A stretch of 38,884 nt of DNA, taken from positions 1 through 38,884 of IMG/VR virus record IMGVR_UViG_3300034096_000909; one strand, written 5' to 3'. Origin of the DNA: a virus. The translations under genes were made by a program, and so were the position numbers. Positions 1,398 through 38,069 of the stretch are shown piece after piece (position 1 is the first letter of the stretch; each line of letters opens with the position of its first letter). Below the pieces are notes generated by a model. It searched no databases. It saw nothing but the letters and a program-made list of their open reading frames with translations, and had not been told where the DNA came from.

Positions 1398-2362
1398 TGA
1401 TTTTGCCCTGATACAAACGCTTTCCAGGACGTTCCGCCATCGACCGAATAAAAGACAAACGTGTCACTCTTGCCGTTGGTCGAAGTGAGCGTAGGGGCTG
1501 TGCCTGAAGGCCATTTGATCGAAGCAGGCCACGTCACTGCCCGAGCCGAGCCATCGGCTGTAAATTCCAAGGTAAAAGCCGCCGCCATCGAGCTGGTAGG
1601 CACATTCGAGATTGTCAGTGTGGTTATGGCTGCATTCAGGCTGACTTTGAAAAAATTGCTGCCAGAAAGATCAAGCGTGAGCGTGCCGCTGCTAATCGCC
1701 GGGCTGGTAAATGTTTCCCGCCAAGCCTGAAAACGTGGTTTGTCCAGAATATTACTATTGAAGTTCTGCTGGCCTGTAAATGTATTGGTCGAAAGTGTTG
1801 CATACGCTGAAAGGCTGGCTGTTGTGGCATAGCTGGAAAGGCTTGCAATCGTGGCATAAGTAGCCGATGCGTTACTGGTCGTCAGGCCATCGGTAATGCC
1901 GTATCCTGCAAGTGTCGTCGGCTTGCCGGTCAGGTTTGCATAACTGAAATTGGCCGATGGCAGATACGTTGCCGCTGCATTGGCGGTTGTCAGGTAAAGC
2001 GATAAATTCGGCGTGCCTGAAATGTTCGAATAAGTTAAGCACGAGGCCGTAATATAGCCCGATGGGTTCGTCTGCAAATAATAGGTGCTTGCCGCTGTGG
2101 TGCTAAGCAGGTAAACGCCCAGATTCGGCGTGCCGGTCAGGTCAGAATAAGCCCCCGATGTTGCCACTGTCGCAAATGTCGGTTTACCCGTGATATTCGA
2201 CCATGTAAGGCAGGAAACCGTCGCATAGTTGCCGATGGGCTGATAGGTCGATGCTGCGTTGGCAGTGGTCAGATAAACATTCAGATTCGGCAGGCCGGTT
2301 AAATCGCTGTAAAGGCCGCTGGTTGCGACTGTCGCAAGCGTGGGCTTGCCTGTCAGGTTCGC
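1..2362. repeat. Left copy of duplicated fibre-tip module
   Basis: This block matches 35024-37382 in the same orientation at roughly nine bases in ten, with one 3-base indel (an extra codon in the left Gly-rich linker). It covers the whole tip gene as far as the window shows it and the C-terminal part of the fibre gene. The match fades abruptly near 2362, where the N-terminal parts of the two fibre proteins stop resembling each other. Confidence 0.9.
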
Positions 2363-2563
2363 CCAAGTGTTATTGGCAATCGTCTGATAAACGGTCAGGT
2401 TGGGCGTGCCGGGAAGGTTGCCGTAATTGATCGAGACGTTGCCCGTCATGTTATTGACGGCTGTTACCATCGCCGTTCGATCATCCTGAAGGATCGTTAC
2501 GGAAAGGGGCGGAATGACGATCTGATCCGGCGAATTTGCCAGAATAACGATTGGGTCAGGCAT
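1394..2563 (-). CDS. Repeat-built tail fibre protein, left copy
   Basis: About 389 residues from ATG 2563, which has a strong 'GGGGG' Shine-Dalgarno run just upstream and overlaps the stop of the preceding gene. A longer frame to 2599 exists but is less likely. The centre consists of repeats of about 25-30 residues of the form 'YSNITGTPNL..YLTTANAA.TYLP', as in trimeric fibre shafts. The C-terminal 110 residues ('TLTLDLSGSNFFKVSLN', 'FTLEFTADG', 'VFYSVDGGTSW') look like a beta-rich tip. It is shorter than its paralogue at 36414-38069: the N-terminal, virion-proximal part differs and lacks the collagen-like segment. Confidence 0.82.
   Translation of the reverse strand: MPDPIVILANSPDQIVIPPLSVTILQDDRTAMVTAVNNMTGNVSINYGNLPGTPNLTVYQTIANNTWANLTGKPTLATVATSGLYSDLTGLPNLNVYLTTANAASTYQPIGNYATVSCLTWSNITGKPTFATVATSGAYSDLTGTPNLGVYLLSTTAASTYYLQTNPSGYITASCLTYSNISGTPNLSLYLTTANAAATYLPSANFSYANLTGKPTTLAGYGITDGLTTSNASATYATIASLSSYATTASLSAYATLSTNTFTGQQNFNSNILDKPRFQAWRETFTSPAISSGTLTLDLSGSNFFKVSLNAAITTLTISNVPTSSMAAAFTLEFTADGSARAVTWPASIKWPSGTAPTLTSTNGKSDTFVFYSVDGGTSWKAFVSGQNQ
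1880..2400 (-). repeat. Shaft repeats of the left fibre gene
   Basis: Degenerate in-frame repeats of about 75-90 bases encode the alternating motifs 'ANLTGKP', 'ATVATSGLYSDLTGLPNL' and 'YLTTANAASTY'. The same array, slightly diverged, lies at 36910-37420. Repeats of this kind change copy number easily by slippage or recombination. Confidence 0.75.
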
Positions 2564-2924
2564 TGCAGCCCCCTTTGCACAAGGCAACGGCTGGGCCAAT
2601 AATTATCGTTCGCTTGTAATTGCCTGCGTCGGTCATGCCCAGTTCCCAGCCGTGGCAACCTTCAGGCACATTGGCCGTAAGTTCTCGCGAAAAGGCCGGG
2701 GCTATCGTGCCATTGGCTGCACTGATTACCGAAACATTGCCTGTAAACACCTGACCGTTTACAAGCAAATTGGCCTCAAACTGATACCCCGTAATATTGA
2801 CCGGAACATTCGTCGTGATGTTATTGGCCGTAACCGGCGTCGTAATCTGGAAAGCCAGCGTGACGTTGTTGCCGGGGTAGAACTCAATTCCTCGGGTTGC
2901 GGCGGTTTGTTTCCATTTACTCAT
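2556..2924 (-). CDS. BppU-like N-terminal fibre/baseplate anchor protein
   Basis: 122 residues; ATG 2924 overlaps the end of the portal gene by 8 bases. The pattern 'GNNVTLAFQITTPV...NITGYQFEANLLVNG', followed by 'SAANGTIAPAFSRELT' and an aromatic 'HGWEL' strand, resembles the small beta-sandwich at the N-terminus of BppU-type baseplate proteins. Its place between portal and fibre matches the unrelated-looking but similarly folded 38062-38406 in the right module. It probably anchors the fibre. There is no catalytic motif. Confidence 0.55.
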   Translation of the reverse strand: MSKWKQTAATRGIEFYPGNNVTLAFQITTPVTANNITTNVPVNITGYQFEANLLVNGQVFTGNVSVISAANGTIAPAFSRELTANVPEGCHGWELGMTDAGNYKRTIIIGPAVALCKGGCNA

Positions 2925-23408: not shown

Positions 23409-24169
23409 CAGCTTCGCTTTCTTCTCACAAATTTCGGATTATGCCCAGCGCCTTGAGGACCCCAATACATCGGATCAACAATCGTCATCAACATTTTGAT
23501 CCAGGCGTTTAGCTCTTTTGTGGCCTGAGTCTTTCCCCACTGCCTGAGCCCGACAAGATTCCGTTTTGGCAGGTCAACCAGGTAAAACGACTGATTAAAG
23601 CCTGTTTTGCCGACATTATCTTTTTCAATCGCTATGGTAGTCCCGTGAAAATGGGCTGCTATGAAGGGAATGCCCTTTTTACTGACAATATCATCCCAGC
23701 CGCCCTCGACTCCGATTCGATTCATCCCGGTTAAGATATTGATTCGGTAATTACTGATAACCCGGCTGGCCGGCCCTCGTGGCGCCAATGGCGGCCCGGT
23801 CATTTTCTTGTATTGAGACGTTTTCAGGTTGTCAGATGGGTTAGGCTTAAAGCCTTGACCGCTTCCGCCAAGACTTGCAAAGTGAAATAATCCGCCCGCT
23901 TCGTAGTTGTTAAACGCTTCACCTTGAGCATTAAAGAATAAATCCCCGGCCCTGCCTGGCCCTGTTTGACTGAGCGAAAGCCGGTATTTTGTCGGCTGCA
24001 TGGGGTTGCCGTCACCGTCAATCCCCATCATTACCCCGCGCCGGTTGTCCTCAATCAATACCTTTGCCCAGGCATCAACCAAGGGACCGACATAATTGTT
24101 AATTGTTTCAAGCCGAAACATGCCCTCGTAAGTCTGTTCAAAACTGCCATCGGCAGAGGCTTTGATCAC
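23408..24169 (-). CDS. Tail completion / virion morphogenesis protein (first of a pair)
   Basis: 253 residues from GTG 24169 (GTGA overlap). 'GMMGIDGDGNPMQP'-like turn, 'GPPLAPRGPASRVISNYRIN', 'IPFIAAHFHGTTI' and 'LPKRNLVGLRQWGK' resemble the gpS/virion-morphogenesis family, in which 'LPKR..LG' near the end is typical. Longer than usual by an insertion in the middle. Acts at the head-tail joint. Confidence 0.6.
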   Translation of the reverse strand: MIKASADGSFEQTYEGMFRLETINNYVGPLVDAWAKVLIEDNRRGVMMGIDGDGNPMQPTKYRLSLSQTGPGRAGDLFFNAQGEAFNNYEAGGLFHFASLGGSGQGFKPNPSDNLKTSQYKKMTGPPLAPRGPASRVISNYRINILTGMNRIGVEGGWDDIVSKKGIPFIAAHFHGTTIAIEKDNVGKTGFNQSFYLVDLPKRNLVGLRQWGKTQATKELNAWIKMLMTIVDPMYWGPQGAGHNPKFVRRKRS

Positions 24170-24942
24170 TTGGCAAAATTCCAGTTCTTAAAATCGACTT
24201 TCACAGTAATTCCTGTGTCTCTTAATCCTGGCGTGCCGGTTGCGGTGTTTCTTACGCGGCTCTTGCTGGTGTTTCTGAATACATTGACACCCGCCGCCAA
24301 GAAATCTTCCACGTCCCATTGTTCGACCGGCTTCACCGGCTTGCCGGTTTTCTTGTCCGTGCCTGAATCGAAAGGCAGCTCGATACCAAGCCCCTGATTT
24401 TCCATAATCGGACTGATTTTCTTGTTAGGCATTGTTCCGCGTCTCCAGTGGCTAAGGGCTTCACGCTTGATTTGCTGTATGCCGGCTGGCGAGATGCCGA
24501 AAACGTCACGTTTTGGCAGCTTGCCAACCACCCGCCCGCCGCGCCTGATACAAGCGCCGCGCCGGTGCATATCAAGTATTTTAGCCCATCCGGATTGCCA
24601 ATAGAACAAAATGCCAAGGCTGGTGATTGTATATTTCAACAGTCGCCTTGTTCTCGATAGCGCCCGGTGCGGCATTAACGGCTCGCCGTCCACCCGCTTA
24701 CCGGTGCGTCGGAATCTGACTTTTCGATACCGGACCGGCTTCAGTTTTCGGCCGTGCCGATCAAGCCCCTTTTGCAGCTCGCTTTGTTTCACCTTTTCGG
24801 CAATAATTCCGGCCACTTCGTAAAACCGCCGTTTTTCGCCCTCAGAGGCTTCTCGCCATTCCCGGCCCTCAGGCTCAATATCTTTAACCAGAAACGTAAG
24901 GGGGTACGTTCCTGGCGGCTCTACGATGGTGCAATCGATCAT
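24166..24942 (-). CDS. Tail completion / virion morphogenesis protein (second of a pair)
   Basis: 258 residues. 'QKGLDRHGRKLKPVRYRKV', 'EPLMPHRALSRTRRLLKYT', 'ILFYWQSGWAKILDMHRRG' and 'GKLPKRDVFGISPAGIQQI' give the same order of features as classic gpG/gpS morphogenesis proteins. A C-terminal addition of about 80 residues ('QWDVEDFLAAGVNVFRNTSK') follows. Adjacent 23408-24169 looks like a distant relative. Confidence 0.66.
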   Translation of the reverse strand: MIDCTIVEPPGTYPLTFLVKDIEPEGREWREASEGEKRRFYEVAGIIAEKVKQSELQKGLDRHGRKLKPVRYRKVRFRRTGKRVDGEPLMPHRALSRTRRLLKYTITSLGILFYWQSGWAKILDMHRRGACIRRGGRVVGKLPKRDVFGISPAGIQQIKREALSHWRRGTMPNKKISPIMENQGLGIELPFDSGTDKKTGKPVKPVEQWDVEDFLAAGVNVFRNTSKSRVRNTATGTPGLRDTGITVKVDFKNWNFAK

Positions 24943-27398
24943 GGTTGTTTTTTGCTAAATAATTTCAACAATCTGATAGCACGTTCAACCGATCCGCGAC
25001 GCATACCAGATTGATCGTTGGATAGCCACAATTCTTTTGTTTTGTTGCGGCCTTGTAGTTCGTAGGTTCGATCAATTTTATTTCGGTTTTGCAGTGATTG
25101 TGATTGAGTTTCGTAAATACCTTTTTCCGTGATTTTGTAGTTTGTGCCTGCTCCGTCGTAACTACCTTTTAGAAACTCTCGTTTAAGTTTGTATTTCGGG
25201 TCAGTATCGGTGATTTTTGCTATGTAGCCCTTTTTGGGCCCGCCCATTGATGATGGCAACTGTAAATCAGCGGCATAAGCTGAACGGACAGTAAAGCCAG
25301 ATGCTGTTTTGGCTGGCTTTATAATATCTTTAAGAGCTTTACCCGCTTCGATTATCTTATAAGCAGTGCTTTTTAGTATTTTGTCTTTTTCGTTGAATTG
25401 TTTACGGGCTTTGATTGATGCATCATAAACATCATGTGCATAGCTTGGGCCTAATGGGTTAGAACCTGGTGTGCCCTTATTTTTAAAAGTTCTTTTGGCA
25501 AGAACAATAGCCGATCTAGCTTCCTTAGGTAATGTCAGCAGGAATCTTGCATCTTGCTTTCTCTCCTCCGTCCCTCTCCCCGGCGCAAGCTGCCCGCCGC
25601 GCGAGAATTTAGGCGGCTTGCCCGCTTTTTTGATCGGAACAATAAATGAGGGTAAATCGGACTTGCTTTTGACAGTCTTTTTGCCCTGCATTGCTACTTT
25701 TAACTGTTGTAGATGATTGTTATTCTCGCCCCGGAAAGATTCAGGCTTAGAGATATAACTGCTTTGTGGGACTTTTGCCGTATTCAGTATGCGCAATTGC
25801 TTGAGAGCGGCGGACGCTGAGCCTCGCAGCATCTTAACTCGTTCAACCAATGCCTCGGCCTGTGTTTTTGTGCCCCCTCTTGTTAAAGCACTTACCCAGG
25901 TACTTTTATTTACGCTGGCCTGGCTTAGCTTGCCTGTAGGGGTTAAAAGCTCTTTTGCCTTTAACTGCGAATCTGTAAGCTTTTGTTCGATGCTTCCTCT
26001 AACATGTGCCGATTGTTCAATAATCTTTTTAGCATTACCAAGCGGCCCAAAGTTGGTAACGTCTCTTGGGTTGTTGGCCGTATAACCCCAGCTTCTACGG
26101 ACTAAAGCATTTTCCCGAATGATACTGGCAAGCCCGCGACCAATAGGCCCTTGAGAACGCAGAGATAGCAGCATTTCGGCCGCTTGCTTTCTTGTTGCTC
26201 TGCCTTCTGGTGATGTTCTCGTATTATTACGCGATTCCCTTAACCGTCTTGCTTTCCAGTATCTTGCGTCGGGATTGCTTTGTACTCCCGCCTCTTTTGC
26301 TCTTCTGTAACGATCTGCCCTGGCTTCTTCGAGAGTTCTTACAGGTGGTGGTGGGGTTGCCGGCTTATTCTTCTCTTTCATCCGCAAGCCGATAAGCTCG
26401 CGATTACCGGCCGCGCTCGCCCTTGCCACGCCATAACCGGGCTTGGATCGAACGGATTGAACCAATGCAGCAGCCCGCGAAAGCGGAGCAGGGGCAGCAG
26501 CCGGCTTTTGTAAATCTTTTCTAAGCTGATTATAAGTGTCTCTAAATAAAGGATATTGTTCTTTAGGTATATCCATCAGGTAATGATGTCCAATTGTGCC
26601 TGTTTCGGGAAAATACACAATACGGCCTTTTTCAACGCCCTTTACAAAAAATCTGTTAGGGTGCTTTCTCCATTGAGTAATATTGCCGCTTTCCATTGCC
26701 GTTTTAATTGCTGGTGGCAACTCAAGAGAATTAACATTGTCAATTAAATTTTTCTCTCGTTCTATTGCTCGTTTTGTTTTCTCAATTCCTGTCTTGCTTG
26801 ATCTTATGCTATCGCTTTGACGCTCCCAGCGGGCCATGGTTGAAGGGCCGTTTCTTTTGTCGTTTAACGGCTGCCCGTTTGCGCTGCGAACATCCGCAAA
26901 ATGCTCGTCAAACCGTCTATTAAGATCGGCTTCTTTCTTAGTAAGTGACCCCTGCAATATCGCTAGTCTTTTTGATCCTGCATTTTCAGTTGTAGCTGAA
27001 ACTACAGGCGCAGCCGGCTTTTGCTGTGCCGCTGTGGCCCCGGCTTGCTTCTCTTTCCGCTGTGCCAGCAGTGTTTTCAATCGCTCTTGCCGGCTCTTTT
27101 GCGTAATCAAGCCTTGATCAAATCGCTGTTGCAACCGCCCCTTGAGTGCGGCCGCGCCTTGATCCGAAAGGTTATAGCCCATGCGTGCCCGGTCGTCAGC
27201 CTGTTTCGCTGTCCGATTCATGGCCCGACATTTCGCCAGGGTGGAATACGTCTGAGGGTCAAGCGGTTCCTTGCCACGAATCGACAATTGCCAGTTCGAA
27301 GCGGCCTGAGAACAGGCGGAATTGCCCGTTTTTGATCGGCTTGAAGGTTTTACCGGCTTCTTTGGTGCTGATGCTTTCTTGGGTGCTTTGGCCGCCAT
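24939..27398 (-). CDS. Large basic protein with shared N-terminal domain; possible virion cargo
   Basis: 819 residues, very Lys/Arg-rich. Residues 1-112 match the start of the next protein upstream (27404-29020): 'RSKTGN.AC..AASNWQL', 'KCRAM', and an identical 'RFDQGLITQKSR'. A segment 'GRIVYFPETGTIGHHYLMDI' follows at about 265-290; the rest is helical and the C-terminus ('KGSYDGAGTNYKITEKGIYE') is beta-rich. Placed between connector and tail genes, where proteins packed in the capsid and injected with DNA are often encoded. No enzyme recognised. Confidence 0.6.
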   Translation of the reverse strand: MAAKAPKKASAPKKPVKPSSRSKTGNSACSQAASNWQLSIRGKEPLDPQTYSTLAKCRAMNRTAKQADDRARMGYNLSDQGAAALKGRLQQRFDQGLITQKSRQERLKTLLAQRKEKQAGATAAQQKPAAPVVSATTENAGSKRLAILQGSLTKKEADLNRRFDEHFADVRSANGQPLNDKRNGPSTMARWERQSDSIRSSKTGIEKTKRAIEREKNLIDNVNSLELPPAIKTAMESGNITQWRKHPNRFFVKGVEKGRIVYFPETGTIGHHYLMDIPKEQYPLFRDTYNQLRKDLQKPAAAPAPLSRAAALVQSVRSKPGYGVARASAAGNRELIGLRMKEKNKPATPPPPVRTLEEARADRYRRAKEAGVQSNPDARYWKARRLRESRNNTRTSPEGRATRKQAAEMLLSLRSQGPIGRGLASIIRENALVRRSWGYTANNPRDVTNFGPLGNAKKIIEQSAHVRGSIEQKLTDSQLKAKELLTPTGKLSQASVNKSTWVSALTRGGTKTQAEALVERVKMLRGSASAALKQLRILNTAKVPQSSYISKPESFRGENNNHLQQLKVAMQGKKTVKSKSDLPSFIVPIKKAGKPPKFSRGGQLAPGRGTEERKQDARFLLTLPKEARSAIVLAKRTFKNKGTPGSNPLGPSYAHDVYDASIKARKQFNEKDKILKSTAYKIIEAGKALKDIIKPAKTASGFTVRSAYAADLQLPSSMGGPKKGYIAKITDTDPKYKLKREFLKGSYDGAGTNYKITEKGIYETQSQSLQNRNKIDRTYELQGRNKTKELWLSNDQSGMRRGSVERAIRLLKLFSKKQP

Positions 27399-27403
27399 CG
27401 TCT

Positions 27404-29020
27404 TTATCTCCCTGCCCGGGCGCGTCGCTGTCTGGCAACTTCCCGCCGCTGTTCTGGTGTTAGTTGTTTGAGGTTTCTGGCTTCTTTCTGTCGCTGTTCT
27501 TTGTTCACGGCGTTATCCAGCAGCTTCATGATTCGCCGCTCAAATTCCGGATAAACCTTGTCCAGCTTCTTCCCGCCTGCCACCTGGCCGGCATAGCGGT
27601 CAAGCGTGCGAGATGTCAGCCCGTAATTTCGTTCGATATCAAACATCTGCAAGGCTTGATCGGCCTGGCGTGCCTGGTCCTGTGAACTGGTCGTATCGAT
27701 CTTGTTTTGACCGACTTGCTCAATCCGATTCACGTTTCGGCTACGTGAAATCTTGCCGAATAAATTGGCATCACCACGCATCCGGCTTTTAAACCGGTCC
27801 GCAAACATGGCCCGGAATTCCGCCAGGTTGACAAACTCCTCATCATCGAAGAGCCCGCCGCCCTGCTTAGCCATAAGCGGAGCCCGCTTCAATTCCTGCC
27901 CGAATTCGGCCGTTTTGCCGCTGGTCCAATTGCCCTTTTCTGATCGATTGAAGAGCTGCAATTGATCCTCTGGCCTCAGTCCTGATCGGCCGATAGCAAC
28001 GGCCCTTGAAAGCGGGGTTGTTTCATCAACCACTTTTCGCCAGATTTGAGGGGCAAGCCCTCGCAATGCCAGCCCTTCCGAAGCGGTACGTTCTGACAGA
28101 CTGATCCCGCGTTGCTTCAGTTCTGATTCAATATCAGGGCTCTTCGAATCGCGGAAAAATCGGCCTGCATCGACCGAAGTTCCACGCCCCTCGGCAATGT
28201 TCGTTAGTGCGCCCTTCTGACGTGCCTCGCCGGCGTCCTTAGCTTGGATGTACTGGACGTTTAAGCTCTTCACGCCCAGCCGCTGCGCCAGCTCGTAGCG
28301 GTGGTGCCCGTTCACGACATAAGTTTTGCCGTTGGCCGGGTCTTTCCAGACCTGGACCACGCCCGCAAGCTCTTTATTCCAGACCTTTGTTTCCTTGAAT
28401 TGATCCGTAACGCCTACAGGCCCGGAAGTATTCATTTTGTACTGAAAACGCTCAGGATCGGCCTGAATTTCGCTTGTTTTCAGCGTCCGAACGCCTGATT
28501 GCGTTTCCGCCCTGGCCTTTTCTTTGGCCTTTACCTGGCTGATCAATCGCTTTGTATCTGCAAGCCCCGGCTTAGGCTCGCGAACGGGTCTAAGTGCCGC
28601 CCGGCCTTTTTCGGTTGGTGCCAGGCGGGCAACGGTCTCTTTTTGTGGCTTGGCTTGTGTGGTGCCGTTACGCTCTGCCCGCTGTTGCAGGCGTTTTTTG
28701 AGTTCTTCGCTACGGCTTTTCTGGGTGATAAGGCCCTGATCAAATCGCTTTTGTAATCGGCCTTCAAGAGCCGCCTGGCCCTTTTCTGAGAGCTTGCCGG
28801 TTCTGCCCTGGTCAACGGCTTGCTTTTTTTGCCGTGCCATTGCCCGGCATTTGCCCAGCGTCTTATATGTGTCTGGTTCAAGAGCCGCCTTTCCTCTAAT
28901 TGCAAGCTGCCAGTTACTCGCAGCGCGTGAACAAGCGTCATTCCCGGTTTTCGAACGGGTAGAAGGCTTTTTCGGTGCTGTAGGCTTACCCGGCTTTTTG
29001 GCTTGTGCAATCGGTGGCAT
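27404..29020 (-). CDS. ParB-like-domain protein with shared N-terminal domain; possible virion cargo
   Basis: 538 residues. Residues 1-112 are the domain shared with 24939-27398. Residues 178-290 form a ParB/sulfiredoxin-like unit: 'LKTSEIQADPERFQYK', 'GKTYVVNGHHRYELAQRLG' with the NGHHR phosphate-binding-type motif, then 'ALTNIAEGRGTSVDAGRFFR'. The remainder is helical and basic. ParB-fold units of this sort occur in phage and plasmid proteins that enter the recipient with DNA. Nuclease, kinase or DNA-binding roles are all possible. Confidence 0.66.
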   Translation of the reverse strand: MPPIAQAKKPGKPTAPKKPSTRSKTGNDACSRAASNWQLAIRGKAALEPDTYKTLGKCRAMARQKKQAVDQGRTGKLSEKGQAALEGRLQKRFDQGLITQKSRSEELKKRLQQRAERNGTTQAKPQKETVARLAPTEKGRAALRPVREPKPGLADTKRLISQVKAKEKARAETQSGVRTLKTSEIQADPERFQYKMNTSGPVGVTDQFKETKVWNKELAGVVQVWKDPANGKTYVVNGHHRYELAQRLGVKSLNVQYIQAKDAGEARQKGALTNIAEGRGTSVDAGRFFRDSKSPDIESELKQRGISLSERTASEGLALRGLAPQIWRKVVDETTPLSRAVAIGRSGLRPEDQLQLFNRSEKGNWTSGKTAEFGQELKRAPLMAKQGGGLFDDEEFVNLAEFRAMFADRFKSRMRGDANLFGKISRSRNVNRIEQVGQNKIDTTSSQDQARQADQALQMFDIERNYGLTSRTLDRYAGQVAGGKKLDKVYPEFERRIMKLLDNAVNKEQRQKEARNLKQLTPEQRREVARQRRARAGR

Positions 29021-29145: not shown

Positions 29146-30009
29146 TCAGTTCCTTACGCATACATTGAGATTGATAACAACGTCGTATTTTTGGCTTGTG
29201 GCATAGCTTTTTACTTTCACCGTCGCGGCGGTTAAGGCGCTATTCGCCATTGCCCGGAATTCAGCGGCTTTTCTACGGTATGCCGATGAATCTTCTTTCA
29301 TGCTTACCTGGGCCATACAAATGAGGTGGCACGCATAAAGAGCGCAGGCCCTTCTCAGTGCCGGCGTCAATTCGATCCCTTTGCCCGATTCAATTGACGT
29401 TTTCAGCCAGTCGGGCGGTTCATCGTGCCGCGTGCCCCAATATTGGCCGTAGGCCGATGTGTAGCGGCTAAACGTGTATCTGTCGTTGTGTGACCGCATA
29501 ACGACATTATCAAGCCATAATCGGGCGGTAATCTGGTGCTCTTCAAAGCCCGTCCGGTCATATTCGCTCTTACACTGATCAATCCAGGGGGCAACCGTGC
29601 GCAGGTCCTCGATGGTCGTATAAGGGCGCTGGCTTACCGGCAAGCAACTTGCCGAATCACCAGGGGCAGGCTTCAGCGTGTAAGAGCCCCGGCAAACTTC
29701 ATAGGTCAGGCCGCCTGAGGTTGCCAACAGTCGCCACTGATAAGAGCTGGCTGGTATTTCATGGGCGCCGGTGGTGGCAATGGTGATAAGGCCGTTATTG
29801 GCATTTGACCAGGCGGCCGTTATGCCCGCGTCGTCAAGTGCTTCGGTTTCATCGCCTCGCCAGACTTCCACGGCCAATACGTCACCGGCAGACCAGCCTG
29901 TTAAGGCTGATCCTGCCAGATTGACGATTTGCAGGCTAAAGGCCCGGTAGGCTCTTGCAGAGCCTTCCAGGTCAAGCCGGCTTGTGACGGGTGTATCACT
30001 CAGGGGCAT
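29146..30009 (-). CDS. Head-tail connector with N-terminal beta-sandwich
   Basis: 287 residues. The first 115 residues ('RAYRAFSLQIVNLAGSALTG', 'GLITIATTGAHEIPASSYQW') resemble the BppU-type sandwich of the fibre-anchor proteins. After 'VSQRPYTTIEDLRTVAPWID' the C-terminal half is helical ('LTPALRRACALYACHLICMA'), like gp6/gp15 connectors that sit under the portal. Directly after the capsid gene. The fusion is unusual. Confidence 0.55.
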   Translation of the reverse strand: MPLSDTPVTSRLDLEGSARAYRAFSLQIVNLAGSALTGWSAGDVLAVEVWRGDETEALDDAGITAAWSNANNGLITIATTGAHEIPASSYQWRLLATSGGLTYEVCRGSYTLKPAPGDSASCLPVSQRPYTTIEDLRTVAPWIDQCKSEYDRTGFEEHQITARLWLDNVVMRSHNDRYTFSRYTSAYGQYWGTRHDEPPDWLKTSIESGKGIELTPALRRACALYACHLICMAQVSMKEDSSAYRRKAAEFRAMANSALTAATVKVKSYATSQKYDVVINLNVCVRN

Positions 30010-30014
30010 GAGAA

Positions 30015-30983
30015 TTACGCCGTCAAGATAGAACGGTGGATAACGCAGTGATCTTTGCGGTGTTCCTTCACATTACAAAGAGTTCTGACTGTAATCCGAT
30101 TAAATGGCCCGCCTGTAGCGCCGAGATTTTCGTCATAGGAAAATGTCAGAAGAACCGGAATCCCCATGACATTGGCATAACGAAAATTGACTGTCCCTGA
30201 AGGCGGTTCAAGCGGGGCGGCCGCAAATACGCAAGCGTTACGGTGAAATACCGCCGTTGAGTATGTCAGGTTGGGCGCGGTTCCCGATGTAACTGACTGT
30301 GGATCTTCCAAGAACTGAAAACCGTATTGCGGCTGAATAACGCCGTTATCGCGCAGCTCGCCGGCTTTACGGTCGCTGATTGCAGCTACTTTGATAAAGT
30401 TGTCATCTTGCAACCACTGGTGATAAATCTCTGAGTGGCCGACAACAAACAGATTTGCGCGGTCTCCCAAAGGAATCTTTCGAGCCGAAAGAACCTTGCG
30501 AAGATTGACAAACTCAGCAAAAGTCACCTTTGCCGGGTTTGTGTTTGTCACACTCGAAGAAGTGTTGCCAGAGACGTTGTAAGTGCCAATGACAAACTTT
30601 GCCGCAACCTTGGCATTCAGATATTCAATCATCTGAATCATGACCTTGCTGATGGCTTGGTCAATGAGTGACGGATTGTCTGCCACTCGTGCCGACTCGT
30701 AACTGGTCACGGTGAAAGACTTTGTAGGCATATCATCAAGTGCCAGGTCGGTTGAAGTCGTCGTGACGTTCTTCGTTCCCGGCGCTGTGGTAATAGCGTT
30801 TACGACATCACCATCAACATCAACCAAGTTGATTTTTACGGTGGCGTTCGGTGGCATTGGCGTATCAGGAACGGGGTTCATATAAACCGCCGAAAGATAG
30901 GCCGCGTGCGGTGTCAGGTGTTGCGAAAGCTCAGTAAACCGAGCCGCAACGGTGTTCATGTACGTACTAAAATCGTTAGGCAT
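30015..30983 (-). CDS. Major capsid protein
   Basis: 322 residues, directly after the scaffold gene. 'VKINLVDVDGDVVNAIT', 'TKSFTVTSYESARVADNPSL', 'IDQAISKVMIQMIEYLNAKV', 'DRANLFVVGHSEIYHQWLQD', 'YANVMGIPVLLTFSYDEN'. This order (beta barrel edge, long helix, then P-domain) fits coat proteins of P22/HK97 fold; I cannot tell the subfamily. No cleaved N-terminal delta domain is visible, in line with a separate scaffold. Confidence 0.82.
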   Translation of the reverse strand: MPNDFSTYMNTVAARFTELSQHLTPHAAYLSAVYMNPVPDTPMPPNATVKINLVDVDGDVVNAITTAPGTKNVTTTSTDLALDDMPTKSFTVTSYESARVADNPSLIDQAISKVMIQMIEYLNAKVAAKFVIGTYNVSGNTSSSVTNTNPAKVTFAEFVNLRKVLSARKIPLGDRANLFVVGHSEIYHQWLQDDNFIKVAAISDRKAGELRDNGVIQPQYGFQFLEDPQSVTSGTAPNLTYSTAVFHRNACVFAAAPLEPPSGTVNFRYANVMGIPVLLTFSYDENLGATGGPFNRITVRTLCNVKEHRKDHCVIHRSILTA

Positions 30984-30998
30984 TATTCGCCTCTCCTA

Positions 30999-31724
30999 TT
31001 ACTGTTTCAGACTTTTCTGATAGCTGTTCACTGCGGCCGGATTAGTCCAGTCAACCGTTTTGGCTGGGTCTCTTGCCGCTTCTGGTGCGGAACCTCCGCC
31101 GACTGCCTGAGCCCCGAACGCCCTTAGCGATGGGGCAGGGGCTGGGGGTGCAGTCTGTTGGCGAACTTCGCCTTCGCCGGCTTGGGCAGGTTGCTCGCCT
31201 GCCTGGGCGCCGGCCGCCTCAAAAAACAGATAAGGCTTCGTGGAATGCGCTTTCCCGATTGCCTCCTGTATCACCTCTGGCGTCAAATCTTCCAGGTCGT
31301 CAAGGCTGGTTCCTGCCGCGCCTAGAATTTCTTGAATTGAAACGCCTTGCTGTAAATTCATGCCTTCAGGAAGTGCCGCATAAATCGCATCTTCCACGTA
31401 AATCTGCTTTAATTCGCCGCGTAACATGGCGTTTTCTTGCGCCAGCTCGTTTTCATTCGTAAACCGCTGAAATTGCTCTGTCTGCTGCTCCATAATCGTG
31501 ATGGCTTCATCACGTTCTTGGATAAGCTGCTGTTGTGTTGATTGCAATTCGTTGAACTTGTTTTGCAGCTCTGCCAACTCGCCCTTCCGGCGCTGAAGTT
31601 GCCTGAGAACCTTTTCAAATTCTGATCGGCTTACAGTGTCGCTCATGCGATTCTTTCTGGGTAAAATACCATTGTCAGCGTCGGGAACGTCCCGGCTGGT
31701 CGATGGTTCAGGTTGTTCTGTCAT
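30999..31724 (-). CDS. Capsid scaffolding protein
   Basis: 241 residues from ATG 31724, adjacent to the protease stop. The N-terminal 110 residues are a coiled coil ('FEKVLRQLQRRKGELAELQN'); a central acidic part follows ('LTPEVIQEAIG'), then a Gln/Ala/Pro-rich linker and a short C-terminus ('AVNSYQKSLKQ') that would bind coat. Standard for scaffolds encoded just before capsid. Confidence 0.8.
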   Translation of the reverse strand: MTEQPEPSTSRDVPDADNGILPRKNRMSDTVSRSEFEKVLRQLQRRKGELAELQNKFNELQSTQQQLIQERDEAITIMEQQTEQFQRFTNENELAQENAMLRGELKQIYVEDAIYAALPEGMNLQQGVSIQEILGAAGTSLDDLEDLTPEVIQEAIGKAHSTKPYLFFEAAGAQAGEQPAQAGEGEVRQQTAPPAPAPSLRAFGAQAVGGGSAPEAARDPAKTVDWTNPAAVNSYQKSLKQ

Positions 31725-32525
31725 TTATTTTTGTAAAACGGGCGGTATCGCTTGCGGGTCAAGTTCCGCCGCAAAAACACCGTAAGCATCAAAGCCACTG
31801 CCGCGCAGATTTCTTTCAGCAATCCAGCAATAGCCTTGATTGCCCCATTCTTGGCCCCAACTGTTTCTCATGCCGATCAGCCAGCCTGATTTGCCTTGTT
31901 TCATGGCAAATCCGCCAGATACCGCGTGATTGTGCCAGCCTGCCCGGTTCATGGGCACGCCCTCTGCATCCAGTGAATTGAAACCGCTGTTTACCGGTAC
32001 GCTGAAATTGAATGGAATGCGAAGCTGTGCCGCTACGCATAAATCGTTGAAGTTTTGCAGCCTGTAGCCAATTTCAACTTTGAATCGCTTCGCATTTTCA
32101 CGGGCATTTTCATTGATTCGACGGGGATTGATCACTCCGTGTGGCACCAGTGCATCGTCACAAGTGCCGCTCTTTTGCAAGTGTGTTAAAGCCTCTGCAA
32201 TTGAGCTGCCCCGGTCGATACCACCACACAAATCAGCATAAACCAGCCAGGCCGATAAGGGCACATAGCCAAGCCCTGCGATATAACGGGCATCTTCCAG
32301 CGATGAGGCTGCTGCATGACCATTACAGGCCCCGTAAGAGCCCTGATTTTTGATTGAAACCTTGTAATCGGGGTTTGATCGATAGTCGAACTCTTGCCAT
32401 TTATGTTCGGGCACATCGGGCAAAACACCGCGAACGGGCAGGATCAGACTGACGGGCGGCTCTTGGTTGCCAAGTAAAACCGTTTGACCGTCTGGCAGTT
32501 CCCATTGTTCCAAGCCTTCGATCAT
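31725..32525 (-). CDS. Papain-family (C1) cysteine protease
   Basis: 266 residues. The active site is complete: oxyanion Gln61 and nucleophile Cys67 in 'KNQGSYGACNGHAAASSLED', His200 in 'WHNHAVSGGFAMKQG' and Asn221 in 'IGMRNSWGQEWGNQGYCWI', in the spacing of papain. There is no signal peptide; an N-terminal 45 residues could be a short prodomain. It lies between small membrane proteins (lysis-like) and the scaffold, so it may degrade the protein-rich host envelope at release, or mature the head. Confidence 0.85.
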   Translation of the reverse strand: MIEGLEQWELPDGQTVLLGNQEPPVSLILPVRGVLPDVPEHKWQEFDYRSNPDYKVSIKNQGSYGACNGHAAASSLEDARYIAGLGYVPLSAWLVYADLCGGIDRGSSIAEALTHLQKSGTCDDALVPHGVINPRRINENARENAKRFKVEIGYRLQNFNDLCVAAQLRIPFNFSVPVNSGFNSLDAEGVPMNRAGWHNHAVSGGFAMKQGKSGWLIGMRNSWGQEWGNQGYCWIAERNLRGSGFDAYGVFAAELDPQAIPPVLQK

Positions 32526-34358: not shown

Positions 34359-34954
34359 GGTAATGGCCCGTTGGCTGTACCGTTTCCGTTCGGTGGTGCC
34401 GGTGGTGGTGGCGGATAGCCCCAGCCTAATCGCGGCATGGCATCTTCAAACTGTTGCAGTGTCGGCACGGGTCGAACGCCTGAAACAACGTCATTTTCAA
34501 TCTGGTACGAAGTTTTGTAACAGGCTGATCGAAACTCTCTGGCCTGCTTTGATTCAGCGGCCCATGCTGCATCTGAATCGTCTGTCCAGTCGCCAGCGGT
34601 ATCGATATTGTCGTAATCTCGCGGGGCAACTGATTTATCCAGATAATCTCTGAGATACTTGGCAAATACAGGCCGGATTGATCGCAGGTAGCTAAGCTGC
34701 TCCTGTTGCGTCAGGCTTACCACCTGCCAGCTTTGATTGACTTTTCCCTGCTGGGCGTCAAATGTCAGTGTTTCGACCGCTTTCTGGGTCTGTTCGTTGA
34801 TCGTCGGCTTGGTCGCTGGGTTGAACGGATACCAGTTATATTTCGCCAATTCTGAAGGTGGCAGGGCGTAGAAATTGCTGATATTCCGGTAATCCCGTGG
34901 CAGGTTCGCCGGGGCACCGATATTACCATTGACGACGAGGCAGTAGAGACTCAC
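34355..34954 (-). CDS. Tail-fibre-associated protein (DUF4376-like C-terminal half)
   Basis: 199 residues from GTG 34954, chosen because it forms a GTGA overlap with the tip gene; ATG 34966 is also possible. 'SVAPRDYDNIDTAGDWTDD' followed by 'WAAESKQAREFRSACYKTSY' matches the helical segment found after many phage tail fibres. A Pro-rich tail 'YPPPPPAPPNGNG' ends the protein. It may be a fibre assembly factor or a minor fibre part. Confidence 0.55.
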   Translation of the reverse strand: MSLYCLVVNGNIGAPANLPRDYRNISNFYALPPSELAKYNWYPFNPATKPTINEQTQKAVETLTFDAQQGKVNQSWQVVSLTQQEQLSYLRSIRPVFAKYLRDYLDKSVAPRDYDNIDTAGDWTDDSDAAWAAESKQAREFRSACYKTSYQIENDVVSGVRPVPTLQQFEDAMPRLGWGYPPPPPAPPNGNGTANGPLP

Positions 34955-36417
34955 GACACACCCCATTTAGCAAGAGAATAGGCTGACATCGCTGTCATGT
35001 CAGAAGCGGAGTAAGCAAACGGGAAGAATAGCACTTCGCCGAACTGGCCCTTTGTGTATCTGTAGTTTTCGCCGTCCTGCCCAACAGTCAGTTTTATGTT
35101 TGTGGCTGCTCTCGGCCTGTTTGTTGACGTGTTGGTTGCTCCCTGCTGTGCGCCATTAATGTAAAACTTCGTGTCGTTGCCTGAGCGAGTGACCGTGATT
35201 CTGTAAAGAATATTATTTGCAGGAGTCCAGCTAACGCCAAAAGTGTAGTTTTGTGTGCTGTTCAGGTTGTACAAGAACCCAAGCACGCCCGCACCAGCAA
35301 CTCCGGGATTATTTAACCCGAGAATCCATTTGGGTTGCTGTCCGCCGCCAGTATCTTGCCCTAAAAGGTCTTGCTGTGCCGTGTTGTCTGTGAATTTTGC
35401 CCAAAAATCAATCGTAAAATCACCTGAGAACACCAATCCCCAGTTTTCGGTGTTTGACACAGAAAAGAAATCATTTGTCCCATCGTATGACGTTGTTGAA
35501 AGCCCGTTATGCCCGTTGGCCGGTGAACGATATAAAGGCCGGTTTGCCAAAGTTGTTTGCAAGGCTGTTCGACTGTTTCCTGACAAGTCATTCCACTGGT
35601 AAACAGCCTGCCCATCTGTATTGACGTTGGTTGCCCCTGCGTCTGTAAACAGACTGCTTTGCCTTGCTCCATCAAGCCATAAAGCCGCCCCTGAAACGGG
35701 CAAACTCAGCGGATAAGGCGCAACATAAGTCTGATCCGCCCAGCTTAATACCTGTGCCTTTGTGGCGTTGTCGTGATATTGGTTGTAAACCAGAAATTCG
35801 GCCAGATCGACCTTTGCATAGCCGTTATAAACCCTGCCAATCTGCCCAATGACAGGATTTGCATTAACCGGCCCGCTTGTTGAGTTTGTAACACCGTTGA
35901 CTTCAATCGTGACCGTTGTGCCGGTTCGCCTTGCGACAATCTCGCAGAATAGGCCGTTTGTGATAGCATTATTGTTGCCCTGAGCAATGTCGCCCAAGGG
36001 AGTGTACCAATACGTTCCTTGAAGATAAGTATTGAGCGAATTGAGGCTGGCGTCTGCCTCGCCAAAAAAGCCGCCGCCACTACCATCTGCCTCCCGCATG
36101 TAGCCGATCCAGTAAATCGTAAAATCCCCGGTCAATGTCATACTTGCGAAATTGATAATATCATCGACACCATCAAAAGAGACGGTCTGAAAGCCGCTGC
36201 CCTGATTTGTTTTCAGGATTGGCTGTTTCGTGCCGGTGGCCTGCGTCGCGTGATTTGTGCCGCCAGATTTGTCGTTAAACTGAGTGACATTTGTTCCAGA
36301 GGTGACAACATCGGTTGCGGAATACCACCGCTGAAGGCCGGTAAGCTGCGATGGGGTAAAAGCACCACCACCACCACCGCCTGTTGCCGTTTTGCGTTGT
36401 AAGAGCTTGGCAATCAT
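34951..36417 (-). CDS. LamG/concanavalin-like tail fibre tip protein, right copy
   Basis: 488 residues from ATG 36417 (ATGA overlap with the fibre gene). Two sandwich units in tandem, as in the left copy, with Gly-rich hinge 'ATGGGGGGAFTPSQL'. It differs from the left copy mainly in short loops (for example 'WYTPLGDIAQG' against 'WFTGSGDIVYG', and 'YNLNSTQNYT' against 'YNTSTSSNYT'). Probable receptor-binding end of the fibre. Confidence 0.82.
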   Translation of the reverse strand: MIAKLLQRKTATGGGGGGAFTPSQLTGLQRWYSATDVVTSGTNVTQFNDKSGGTNHATQATGTKQPILKTNQGSGFQTVSFDGVDDIINFASMTLTGDFTIYWIGYMREADGSGGGFFGEADASLNSLNTYLQGTYWYTPLGDIAQGNNNAITNGLFCEIVARRTGTTVTIEVNGVTNSTSGPVNANPVIGQIGRVYNGYAKVDLAEFLVYNQYHDNATKAQVLSWADQTYVAPYPLSLPVSGAALWLDGARQSSLFTDAGATNVNTDGQAVYQWNDLSGNSRTALQTTLANRPLYRSPANGHNGLSTTSYDGTNDFFSVSNTENWGLVFSGDFTIDFWAKFTDNTAQQDLLGQDTGGGQQPKWILGLNNPGVAGAGVLGFLYNLNSTQNYTFGVSWTPANNILYRITVTRSGNDTKFYINGAQQGATNTSTNRPRAATNIKLTVGQDGENYRYTKGQFGEVLFFPFAYSASDMTAMSAYSLAKWGVS

Positions 36418-37382
36418 TGATTTTGCCCTGATACAAACGCTTTCCAAGACGTTCCGCCATCGACCGAATAAAAGACAAACGTGTCACTCTTGCCGTTGGT
36501 CGAAGTGAGCGTAGGGGCTGTGCCTGAAGGCCATTTGATCGAAGCAGGCCACGTCACTGCCCGAGCCGTGCCATCGGCTGTAAATTCCAGCGTGAAAGCC
36601 GACGCCATCGAGTTTGATGGAACGTTTGAAATCGTCAGTGTGGTTATGGCTGCATTCAGGCTGACTTTGAAGAAATTACTGCCTGAAAGGTCGAGCGTGA
36701 GCGTGCCGCTACTGATTGCTGGGCTGGTGTAAGATTCCCGCCAAGATTGCAGCCGTGGTTTGTCCAGAATGTTACTGTTGTAATTCTGCTGGCCCGTAAA
36801 TGTGTTTGTCGAAAGTGTTGCATACGCTGAAAGGCTGGCAATCGTCGCATAGCTTGAAAGGCTGGCAATCGTGGCATAAGTAGCCGCTGCGTTACTGGTT
36901 GTCAATCCATCGGTAATGCCGTATCCGGCAACTGTCGTCGGCTTGCCCGTGATATTGGCAAAACTGAAGTTGGCCGATGGAAGATACGTCGTAGCTGCGT
37001 TGGCTGTTGTCAAATACAGGCTTAAATTCGGCGTTCCTGTAATGTTGCTGTAGGTTAAGCAGGAAGCTGTAATATAGCCCGATGGGTTCGTCTGCAAATA
37101 ATAGGTGCTGGCTGCTGTGGTGCTAAGCAGGTAAACACCCAGATTCGGCGTGCCGGTCAGGTCAGAGTAAGCTCCTGACGTTGCCACAGTCGCAAATGTC
37201 GGTTTACCCGTGATGTTTGACCAAGTCAGGCAGGAAACCGTCGCATAGTTGCCGATGGGCTGATAGGTCGATGCTGCCGTTGAACTCAACAGATATACGT
37301 TCAGATTCGGCAGGCCAGAAAGATCGCTGTAAAGGCCGCTGGTGGCGACTGTGGCAAAAATCGGCTTTCCCGTCAGGTTGGC
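35024..37382. repeat. Right copy of duplicated fibre-tip module
   Basis: Pairs with 1-2362, direct orientation. See the left copy for extent and the position of the break. Confidence 0.9.
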
Positions 37383-38069
37383 GTAGGTAAAGTTAGCTGT
37401 GGGCAGATAGGCGTTCAGGTTAGCAGGCGTTGCATAGCGGCTGTCGGCACGACCCTGAGTGAGAAAACTACTTGCAGACCAAGTGTAACTAGCTGTGCCC
37501 GTTTCTGCTGATAACCCATCGCTTGCCAGCCGAACCGACATGTTGTTCCACCGCAGGCGAACTCCACCAAAAATGTCGTCAGGGTCTAGCTCAACAGAAG
37601 CTGCCATGCCAGTTAATTGCGACGAGACAACTGCCGTAGAGCCTAATGATAATTGGCCTGCAAAAAATGACGCTGGATCGCTTGGATTCTTTTTGTATCT
37701 CAGTCCGTAAAAAATATCGTTCCCATATGTGGTGCTGACAGGAACAGCTTTTGTATCAGCCAGATAAACACTATTAGCCAAACTGGTCACATCGTTGGCA
37801 AGCAAGGTCACATTGCCTGTGCGTCCGTTGAACGTGGTCACACCACCTGGAGTGCCTGATAACCGGCCATTTATTATCGTCAGATTGTCGCCAACAATAA
37901 TCCCGCCAAGCGTACTGTTTGTGGCTGCGGGTAATGTGTAGTTCCCACCAGGCAAACCCTGTGGCCCTTGCGCACCTTGTGGCCCCTGTGGCCCCTGCGC
38001 GGCGGTGCGGACACGAATGGTATAAGGATTTCCACCAGTCACTCTTACACGATACGGAGGATTAGCCAC
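36414..38069 (-). CDS. Repeat-built tail fibre protein with collagen-like stretch, right copy
   Basis: 551 residues from GTG 38069 (GGAGG upstream). Residues 26-42 are collagen-like Gly-X-Y ('GPQGPQGAQGPQGLPGG'). A unique region follows to about residue 230, then the same 'NITGTPNL..YLTTANAATTY' shaft repeats and beta-rich tip as the left copy. The collagen-like and unique parts would be virion-proximal. Trimeric shaft expected. Confidence 0.85.
   Translation of the reverse strand: MANPPYRVRVTGGNPYTIRVRTAAQGPQGPQGAQGPQGLPGGNYTLPAATNSTLGGIIVGDNLTIINGRLSGTPGGVTTFNGRTGNVTLLANDVTSLANSVYLADTKAVPVSTTYGNDIFYGLRYKKNPSDPASFFAGQLSLGSTAVVSSQLTGMAASVELDPDDIFGGVRLRWNNMSVRLASDGLSAETGTASYTWSASSFLTQGRADSRYATPANLNAYLPTANFTYANLTGKPIFATVATSGLYSDLSGLPNLNVYLLSSTAASTYQPIGNYATVSCLTWSNITGKPTFATVATSGAYSDLTGTPNLGVYLLSTTAASTYYLQTNPSGYITASCLTYSNITGTPNLSLYLTTANAATTYLPSANFSFANITGKPTTVAGYGITDGLTTSNAAATYATIASLSSYATIASLSAYATLSTNTFTGQQNYNSNILDKPRLQSWRESYTSPAISSGTLTLDLSGSNFFKVSLNAAITTLTISNVPSNSMASAFTLEFTADGTARAVTWPASIKWPSGTAPTLTSTNGKSDTFVFYSVDGGTSWKAFVSGQNQ

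What the first reader, a model, noticed from the sequence alone, without database searches (positions are those of the whole stretch)
24939..29020. Two neighbouring basic proteins share a delivery-like N-terminal domain but have unrelated bodies
The sequences show a shared first ~112 residues: two conserved Cys-containing motifs ('TGN.AC..AASNWQL', 'KCRAM') and an exactly repeated 'RFDQGLITQKSR'. After that, one protein has a ParB/Srx-like unit with NGHHR and the other an 819-residue body of unknown fold. A common head with different payloads, encoded between connector and tail genes, suggests a tag for packing into the capsid and injection with DNA. From established knowledge, phage and plasmid 'polyvalent' proteins and T4/P1 internal proteins work this way. 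That these two do so is inference.
Basis: partly seen in the sequence, partly recalled or inferred. Interest (0 to 1): 0.78.

Follow-up and report, generated by a model that had tools for sequence, protein, structure and literature searches.

The report
Phage cargo proteins sharing one tag
This bacterial virus makes two proteins that begin with the same small domain but carry different payloads; relatives in other viruses suggest the domain is a packing label for proteins injected into the host with the viral DNA.

Summary
Two adjacent late genes (538 and 819 aa) share residues 1-~120 (69% identical) on unrelated bodies; third codon positions agree at only 38%, so selection, not recent copying, keeps the likeness.

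The head is a real but rare family. Its core (KTG[ND]xxCSxAxSxW...LxxCR, a predicted helical hairpin) occurs in seven other records, one a Planctomycetales MAG, on ParB bodies, two other bodies, or almost none. Wherever readable, a portal homologue lies upstream (6 of 6). The 538 body has a ParB/Noc-like fold; all 80 relatives fetched lie in large ORFs, and two annotated phages have it at a T7 gp16-like position (my reading). The 819 body starts with a domain that is mostly a stand-alone early prophage gene and also opens a conjugative-plasmid ArdC protein; its C-terminal modules are shuffled in a close relative.

All ten complete head proteins (eight distinct) have exactly two cysteines, both in the head; injected proteins of T7, N4 and P1 are cysteine-poor too.

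Best reading: polyvalent-like cargo packed in the capsid and injected, with the head as docking tag. Virion location is inferred, not shown. New variant of a known kind.

The parts
27404..29020 (-). Cargo protein 1 (538 aa): shared head + linker + ParB/Noc-like body + helical tail
28664..29020 (-). Shared head of cargo 1 (residues 1-119); the only Cys of the protein are C30 and C58
28811..28951 (-). Conserved core of the head, residues 24-70 (KTGNDACSRAASNW...LGKCRAM), predicted helical hairpin 28-41/49-70, pLDDT 80-91 by blocks of ten
27878..28498 (-). ParB/Noc-like body, residues 175-381 (N237-G-H-H-R241 motif; Srx-like part, then HTH part)
24939..27398 (-). Cargo protein 2 (819 aa): shared head + 'D2' domain + variable C-terminal modules
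27039..27398 (-). Shared head of cargo 2 (residues 1-120); the only Cys of the protein are C29 and C57
26523..26975 (-). 'D2' domain (my label), residues 142-292: long antiparallel coiled coil plus small beta part; homologous to stand-alone early prophage genes and to the N-terminus of an Enterococcus ArdC protein; residues 188-295 also match phrog_3778 'head maturation protease' positions 13-104 (E 2.4e-5)
24939..26501 (-). C-terminal region of cargo 2 (residues 300-819), modules reordered or replaced in the close relative L010 (762 aa)
29146..30009 (-). Upstream neighbour, read as head-tail adaptor from position (phrog_302 'virion structural protein' only E 0.045); in relative L110 its homologue adjoins the neck homologue with no cargo gene between
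30015..30983 (-). Major capsid protein
   Evidence: phrog_283, 1e-13
30999..31724 (-). Scaffold-like gene
   Evidence: Phage_scaffold, E 0.00046, 20.7 bits, below the Pfam cut-off of 35
24166..24942 (-). Downstream neighbour, neck/tail-completion-like gene, overlapping the end of cargo 2 by 4 bases
   Evidence: phrog_26, E 0.0037

Best explanation
The two genes encode internal virion cargo proteins. Steps shown: a homologous head (core about 45 residues) precedes several unrelated bodies across related phages; the genes sit among head-assembly genes; the two identified bodies are relatives of domains used in polyvalent or likely internal virion proteins; bodies are free of cysteine. Steps inferred: during procapsid assembly the head (a helical hairpin carrying the protein's only two cysteines, plus a basic N-terminal tail) binds a component near the portal or scaffold and carries the payload into the capsid; on infection the largely helical, cysteine-free chain is threaded out through the tail with the DNA. 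In the host cell cargo 1 would bind or nick DNA with its ParB/Noc-like domain, and cargo 2 would supply an early-takeover function (D2) that other phages express from an early operon, plus exchangeable modules.
For: Head in seven records beyond the window family (L128, L110, L188, L190, L189, L200, L210) with bodies ParB (L110, L128, L210), a C-terminal module unlike the others (L188), a 'RADLV' module also seen in L128 (L190), or almost none (L200, 204 aa); L189 is cut by its contig end. A homologue of the window portal (phrog_64, E 7.7e-5) lies upstream in 6 of the 6 with a readable upstream side; downstream, a homologue of the window capsid protein in L110, L128 and L188, a homologue of L128's scaffold-like gene in L210, and in L190 an ORF that I read as capsid from its place. 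ParB body: 171 viral relatives, of which 80 were fetched (3 of the window family), all 80 in ORFs of at least 533 aa, and the 2563-aa and 1484-aa proteins behind the tail tubular genes of Prochlorococcus P-SCSP1f and MedDCM-OCT-S31-C1. D2: 75 of 80 fetched relatives (of 119) are ORFs of 231 aa or less; of the 78 loci outside the window family 37 have a cI-like repressor, 14 SSB, 10 YqaJ-like and 8 RecT-like genes; it also opens an Enterococcus ArdC-MPTase protein. Cys: 16 in 4753 aa of eight distinct complete head proteins, all in heads, against 28-41 expected outside heads; hand-picked yardstick: ejected T7/N4/P1 proteins 14 in 10,120 aa, other virion proteins 40 in 6,937. Close relative L010: heads 97-98% identical, cargo 2 C-terminus reordered.
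Against: I saw no virion proteomics for any head-bearing phage. The tag function rests on position and domain sharing; head and body could instead be one structural unit. The head is rare: 5 of the 80 fetched ParB loci carry it, three of them the window family. In the window family the genes lie behind the capsid gene, next to connector-like genes. Several neighbour names (adaptor, scaffold, tail, portal) rest on weak matches or position. Cys poverty is not exclusive to ejected proteins (N4 capsid protein and T7 scaffold have none; P1 DarB has nine), and the ParB region has no Cys in any of 75 other loci, so part of the pattern belongs to that family. One weak head match lies in a tape-measure-like ORF. 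No P1 DdrB or Pfam ddrB-ParB match.
Confidence: 0.65

Rival explanations
1. The head is itself the functional part: a minor head or portal-proximal assembly domain (MuF-like role), and the various bodies are fused passengers that stay in the capsid or matter little.
For: The L200 protein is a head with little behind it (204 aa), and in most relatives the gene sits directly behind portal, the usual place of minor head proteins (recalled).
Against: Two paralogues in one genome with different bodies, each head 97-98% identical between window and L010 and the cargo 1 body 98%; bodies related to polyvalent or early domains.
Confidence: 0.2
2. They are late cytoplasmic proteins (for example DNA segregation or packaging helpers) that never enter the virion.
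For: A ParB/Noc fold with HTH is used by hosts and plasmids for DNA segregation.
Against: No ParA-like family was named among the 30 window ORFs scanned against PHROGs (not a dedicated search); the ParB body recurs at an internal-core-like position in T7-like phages; D2 is elsewhere mostly an early gene.
Confidence: 0.1
3. They are connector or tail structural proteins, since they lie between adaptor-like and neck-like genes.
For: Position in the window.
Against: In L110 the adaptor and neck homologues adjoin without a gene between, and the head gene lies before the scaffold-like and capsid genes there and in L128 and L188; portable payloads are unlike a ring protein.
Confidence: 0.05

Closest known systems
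Phage polyvalent proteins (Iyer et al. 2017, PMC5512222; abstract, passages and section 29 seen)
   Same: Late-gene proteins next to virion genes, mixing unrelated domains, predicted to be packed and injected; ParB/Srx domains and ArdC-type proteins belong to that set.
   Different: Here two neighbouring proteins carry the same dedicated N-terminal domain, which is not in the Pfam, NCBIfam or PHROGs copies searched; the ParB domain is not matched by the DdrB-like model.
P1 DarB capsid targeting sequence and Dar system (PMC9024508, PMC12810830; passages seen)
   Same: N-terminal packing signal (30 residues sufficient in DarB) on a large protein co-injected with DNA.
   Different: No similarity found to DdrB or DarA (DarB itself not compared); here the signal would be a folded domain shared by two cargoes.
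T4 internal protein IPIII with CTS (as described in the PMC9024508 passages)
   Same: An N-terminal tag is sufficient to send different proteins into the head.
   Different: The T4 tag is short and cut by a head protease (recalled); no processing was tested here.
T7 gp14-gp16 and N4 vRNAP ejection proteins
   Same: Large, cysteine-poor internal proteins; the ParB body occurs at a gp16-like position in cyanopodoviruses (my reading of gene order).
   Different: No whole-protein homology was seen; the window phage has separate smaller cargo genes.
Four-cysteine module of ParB loci and of Planktothrix phage PaV-LD (found here)
   Same: A small cysteine motif repeated on several neighbouring proteins with different bodies.
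   Different: Not alignable to the two-cysteine head (hhalign probability 0.1%), and the bodies are less strictly free of Cys (0.33% outside the module).

Membership tests
Phage polyvalent proteins | Several unrelated domains in one late-gene protein next to virion genes | tested here: met
   819 aa: head, D2, further modules; 538 aa: head and ParB/Noc-like body; both between capsid and neck-like genes
Phage polyvalent proteins | Carries a curated polyvalent domain (for example LPD, MPTase, ArdC-N, ddrB-ParB) | tested here: not met
   No Pfam family for either protein at E<=1; a plasmid protein that carries D2 matches ArdcN and, below its cut-off, MPTase-PolyVal. I therefore say polyvalent-like, not member
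Phage polyvalent proteins | Packed in the virion and injected | not testable with these tools
   Needs virion proteomics
ParB/sulfiredoxin superfamily (538 body) | Fold and G-x-x-R motif | tested here: met
   VIA Z 12.3, rmsd 4.3 over 183 residues to Caulobacter ParB 6t1f_D; Z 8.2, rmsd 3.2, 83 residues to sulfiredoxin 6ky4; G238 and H239 in 61 of 61, R241 in 60 of 61 rows
DdrB-like ParB | Asp/Asn at the end of strand 2 and conserved Arg, as described in PMC5512222 | tested here: inconclusive
   N237 in 60 of 61 rows, R241 in 60 of 61; that N237 is the residue meant is my reading of the model; the conserved tyrosine helix was not tested
DdrB-like ParB | Match to the Pfam model PF18763 or to P1 DdrB | tested here: not met
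   PF18763: no match at E<=10 in the window; hhalign against P1 DdrB no match
MuF-type minor head proteins | MuF domain | tested here: not met
   No Pfam match at E<=1
T4/P1-type capsid-targeted proteins | N-terminal segment sufficient for packing a reporter | not testable with these tools
   Needs a fusion experiment

The most novel reading that the evidence does not exclude
Tailed phages carry families of portable, folded encapsidation tags built round conserved cysteines: a two-cysteine hairpin in phages of (probably) Planctomycetes and an unrelated four-cysteine module in cyanophage-like phages. Each is repeated on several neighbouring cargo proteins; behind the two-cysteine tag the bodies are free of cysteine, so that they can be unfolded through the portal. 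In that tag the pair could act as a latch: oxidised in the free virion, reduced in the host cytoplasm to release the payload.
Probability: 0.24. Interest if true: 0.82.

Novelty: new variant of a known kind. Interest (0 to 1): 0.63.

Why it matters
If the head is a packing tag it gives a sequence handle for finding injected proteins in uncultured phages, probably of Planctomycetes, and a further kind of protein-delivery tag beside those of T4 and P1. Cargo 2 also shows a function that most phages seem to express early (D2) moved into the particle, which makes the function of D2 testable in the many prophages that carry it alone.

Tried and rejected
Head against PDB sequences: only E 1.1, rejected. 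Head against 50,697 phage records by tblastn: no match. First genome-contig scan with two heads: none of 207 pattern stretches; the second scan, allowed because the first was empty, gave one locus. A degenerate pattern without the KTG part gave, beside the known contigs, four stretches (L016, L017, L020, L021) that I judged unrelated by eye. Neck protein scan found only the window family. The weak second head match in the L128 record (E 6e-4) lies in a tape-measure-like ORF and was dropped; the G323 match (E 1e-3, two TGA inside) was dropped. L109, a relative with a homologous capsid protein, has its ParB ORF cut by the contig end and gave no head match. Kinship of the two-Cys head with the four-Cys module: rejected. 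Membership with P1 DdrB: not supported. VIA rows for the 819-aa model are generic coiled coils, nearly all over residues 142-225, and were not used; its best BFVD hit (A0A8S5TS66, E 1.3e-5, uncharacterised) was not followed. Two Listeria phage fragments matched D2 weakly (E 4e-3) and were not followed. Control that went against me: sharing of N-terminal parts within a locus was 12 of 76 for ParB proteins but 34 of 136 for other ORFs of 300 aa or more. Splitting the others gave 24 of 24 among four-Cys ORFs and 10 of 112 among the rest; as the four-Cys model was built from such shared segments, this is partly by construction. Also against a general rule: four-Cys ParB proteins keep 0.33% Cys outside the module (42 in 12,613 aa, 11 proteins) against 0.53% in neighbouring ORFs; ParB proteins without it have 0.105% (116 in 110,570 aa, 60 proteins). 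Recent DNA copying of the exact 12-residue repeat: rejected. PADLOC: no match at E<=0.01.
Full report
OBSERVATION. Window genes 27404-29020(-) and 24939-27398(-) encode 538 and 819 aa. Heads are 69% identical (BLASTP E 7e-41) and score 364 against a shuffled maximum of 66, whereas the bodies score like shuffled sequence. Third codon positions agree at 0.383 between the heads in one genome, 0.417 in the exact RFDQGLITQKSR repeat, but at 0.81 and 0.91 between each head and its counterpart in contig L010. The two heads are therefore old, separately kept copies.

SURROUNDINGS. On the minus strand the order is papain-like peptidase (PF00112, 1e-11), scaffold-like gene (weak), capsid (phrog_283), a gene read as adaptor from its place, cargo 1, cargo 2, neck-like gene (phrog_26, E 0.0037), then genes that I read as tail genes without database support. 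The two cargo genes are 5 bases apart and the second overlaps the neck-like gene by 4. The large terminase (phrog_2, 8.6e-31) and portal (phrog_64, 7.7e-5) lie elsewhere in the record. The window is a virus record of 38,884 bases; its host is not known to me.

HEAD FAMILY. Scans with the two heads, and with the whole 538-aa protein, gave only three contigs of the same phage group. ParB relatives L128 and L110 then showed a head-like N-terminus (E 2e-6 and 1e-4 for the whole proteins; alignments). A pattern built from these gave L188, L189 and L190, a profile-derived scan repeated them (9 of 10 pattern stretches confirmed, 8 loci), a genome scan gave L200 from a Planctomycetales MAG (1 of 6 pattern stretches), and 397 genomes drawn from its class gave 3 matches: that genome, G080 and one doubtful frame with two TGA that I dropped. 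Eleven columns are invariant in the seven-row alignment A9: K9, T10, G11, C15, S16, A18, S20, W22, L40, C43 and R44 of its first row. Bodies: ParB in L110, L128 and L210 (G080; locus L208); a C-terminal module unlike the others in L188; in L190 a module with a RADLV motif also visible in L128; little in L200 (204 aa); unknown in L189, cut by the contig end. These body descriptions, apart from ParB, are my reading of the sequences; Pfam named none of them. In six of six records where the upstream side is readable a homologue of the window portal lies upstream (in L188 with the peptidase and at least two other ORFs between). Downstream, a homologue of the window capsid protein follows in L110, L128 and L188, homologues of L128's scaffold-like gene in L110, L188 and L210, and in L190 an ORF that I read as capsid from its place, with a homologue in L210. 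In L110 the adaptor and neck homologues adjoin with no gene between, so I take the two cargo genes between them in the window for a derived arrangement and not part of the connector. The head is rare: of the 80 fetched ParB loci five carry it, three of them the window family.

CARGO 1 BODY. Residues 171-482 match phrog_21 (4.9e-55), a family annotated 'portal protein' whose positions 1011-1327 of 1362 are this region. In annotated phages the region lies inside the 2563-aa protein of Prochlorococcus P-SCSP1f and the 1484-aa protein of MedDCM-OCT-S31-C1, behind the tail tubular genes. The authors of P-SCSP1 speculate that two genes of P-SCSP1a encode internal virion proteins by size and position (PMC9860041, passages); that one of these is the same gene is my inference. 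The folded model (mean pLDDT 81.2; 61 rows) aligns with ParB/Noc, first part and HTH part (Foldseek E 2.2e-6 to 7nfu_B; VIA Z 12.3, rmsd 4.3, 183 residues to 6t1f_D; sulfiredoxin 6ky4 Z 8.2, rmsd 3.2, 83 residues). G238 and H239 occur in 61 of 61 rows, R241 and N237 in 60 of 61. This resembles the description of DdrB-like ParB domains in PMC5512222 (passages), but neither the Pfam model nor P1 DdrB matches. I therefore place it in the ParB/Srx superfamily and do not file it as DdrB-like.

CARGO 2 BODY. Residues 142-292 (D2) match gp39 of Proteus phage Brookers (55%), a 163-aa gene among early genes, a stand-alone ORF of a Parabacteroides plasmid with phage-like genes (46%) and the start of an Enterococcus conjugative-plasmid protein with ArdC-N and MPTase-like domains beside a MobP2 relaxase (25.7%). 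Residues 188-295 also match the first part of phrog_3778, annotated head maturation protease (E 2.4e-5). Of 119 viral relatives 80 were fetched: 75 of 80 lie in ORFs of 231 aa or less; the rest are the two window-family proteins, L028 (246 aa), L086 (364) and L029 (1277). Among the 78 loci outside the window family cI-like repressors recur upstream (37 loci; 36 of 39 members on the same strand), and SSB (14), YqaJ-like exonuclease (10) and RecT-like (8) genes downstream; these names are my reading of the printed sequences. D2 is thus mostly an early-operon gene. In the close relative L010 cargo 2 has 762 aa: 819:1-386 aligns with 762:1-426 at 84% identity, beyond which segments recur in another order (819:519-696 with 762:327-506 at 25%; 819:596-621 with 762:664-689 at 81%). 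The model of 819 is confident only for the head, D2 and a few helices (mean pLDDT 63.5).

CYSTEINES. Each of ten complete head proteins (window pair and their two L010 counterparts, L128, L110, L188, L190, L200, L210; eight distinct) has exactly two Cys, both in the head, 23-28 residues apart; the partial L189 frame has a third, upstream of its first ATG. In the eight distinct proteins (4753 aa) none occur outside the heads, where 28 (rate of 21 other window proteins) or 41 (rate of 20 genes near the head genes of relatives) would be expected. The ParB region has none in 75 of 75 other loci (23,190 aa, with near-duplicate contigs), so part of the pattern belongs to that family. As a small hand-picked yardstick, ten proteins known or taken as ejected from T7, N4 and P1 hold 14 Cys in 10,120 aa (T7 gp15, gp16 and N4 vRNAP none; DarB nine) against 40 in 6,937 aa of 13 other virion proteins. 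Cys poverty fits threading through the tail but is not proof: the N4 capsid protein and the T7 scaffold also lack Cys. In the model the two head Cys lie in the two helices of the hairpin (28-41 and 49-70); that they face each other is inference from helix lengths.

A SECOND TAG. In the ParB loci a four-cysteine module (for example CTTGYGCGSTCINVKKECR) was found in 21 of 80, in two or more ORFs in 18 of 80, and in 0 of 80 D2 loci. The model was built from 35 segments of 13 of these loci, five of the 18 rest on a second match of only E 0.002-0.0045, and several contigs are near-duplicates (such as L118-L127 and L182). In Planktothrix phage PaV-LD 5 of 13 CDS tested (078, 079, 080, 081, 085) carry it in their first part; ORF081 is annotated 'virion structural protein', ORF085 'minor virion protein', and the body of ORF081 matches peptidase- or structure-annotated phage proteins and, weakly, the C-terminal part of P1 DdrB (26.8%, E 0.009). 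One tagged ORF of L130 has the Pfam domain LPD1 (1.6e-10). This module is not alignable to the window head. The same design therefore seems to exist twice with unrelated tags, though behind the four-Cys module the bodies are less free of Cys.

MECHANISM. Shown: the shared head, its recurrence on other bodies, the gene position, the relatives of the bodies and the Cys pattern. Inferred: packing by the head, injection, and the actions of the bodies in the host. For P1 it is reported that 30 N-terminal residues of DarB send a reporter into the capsid (PMC9024508, passages) and that Dar proteins are co-ejected (PMC12810830, passages); in crassvirus a domain of cargo protein C1 docks on the portal (PMC10172136, passages). 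A portal- or scaffold-docking hairpin is the analogous proposal here.

NOVELTY. Polyvalent injected proteins and N-terminal packing signals are known. I did not find this head family in Pfam, NCBIfam or PHROGs, in the 50,697 phage records at E<=1, or in the listings of the paper searches, which used general terms; no paper in the library holds both 'capsid targeting sequence' and 'polyvalent protein'. That is not a full literature search. I rate it a new variant of a known kind.

Noticed in passing
L111-L143, L175, L176 and PaV-LD L211:7370-15434: A four-cysteine module repeated on several neighbouring cargo-type proteins with different bodies, unrelated in sequence to the window head.
   Followed up: partly
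window 26523-26975; loci L028-L105: D2 is a widespread, unnamed ~163-aa gene, often downstream of a cI-like repressor and upstream of SSB/RecT/YqaJ-like genes; also the N-terminal domain of an Enterococcus conjugative-plasmid ArdC protein.
   Followed up: partly
window 31725-32525: Papain-family C1 peptidase (PF00112) between late genes, with a homologue just before the cargo gene in L188 (1915-2694); could be a head maturation protease acting on cargo.
   Followed up: no
window 3-2599 and 34951-38069: Two copies of a tail-fibre-like gene plus a second structural gene, matching the same PHROGs (phrog_9017 and phrog_10356), at the two ends of the record; the 34951 copy has a LamG-type domain.
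   Followed up: no
window 25569-25580 (819 residue 607), L110, L189, L190, L200, L210: A short motif GRGTxxR lies downstream of the head, once or repeatedly (five times in L110), in six of nine distinct head proteins; perhaps a linker or processing signal.
   Followed up: no
L029:3768-7601: 1277-aa D2 protein with three copies of an 'HPR...G...GQF..K'-like motif, another repeated short element in a polyvalent-like protein.
   Followed up: no
ParB proteins L109, L111-L127, L129-L185: ParB regions have no cysteine at all in 75 of 75 loci (23,190 residues).
   Followed up: partly
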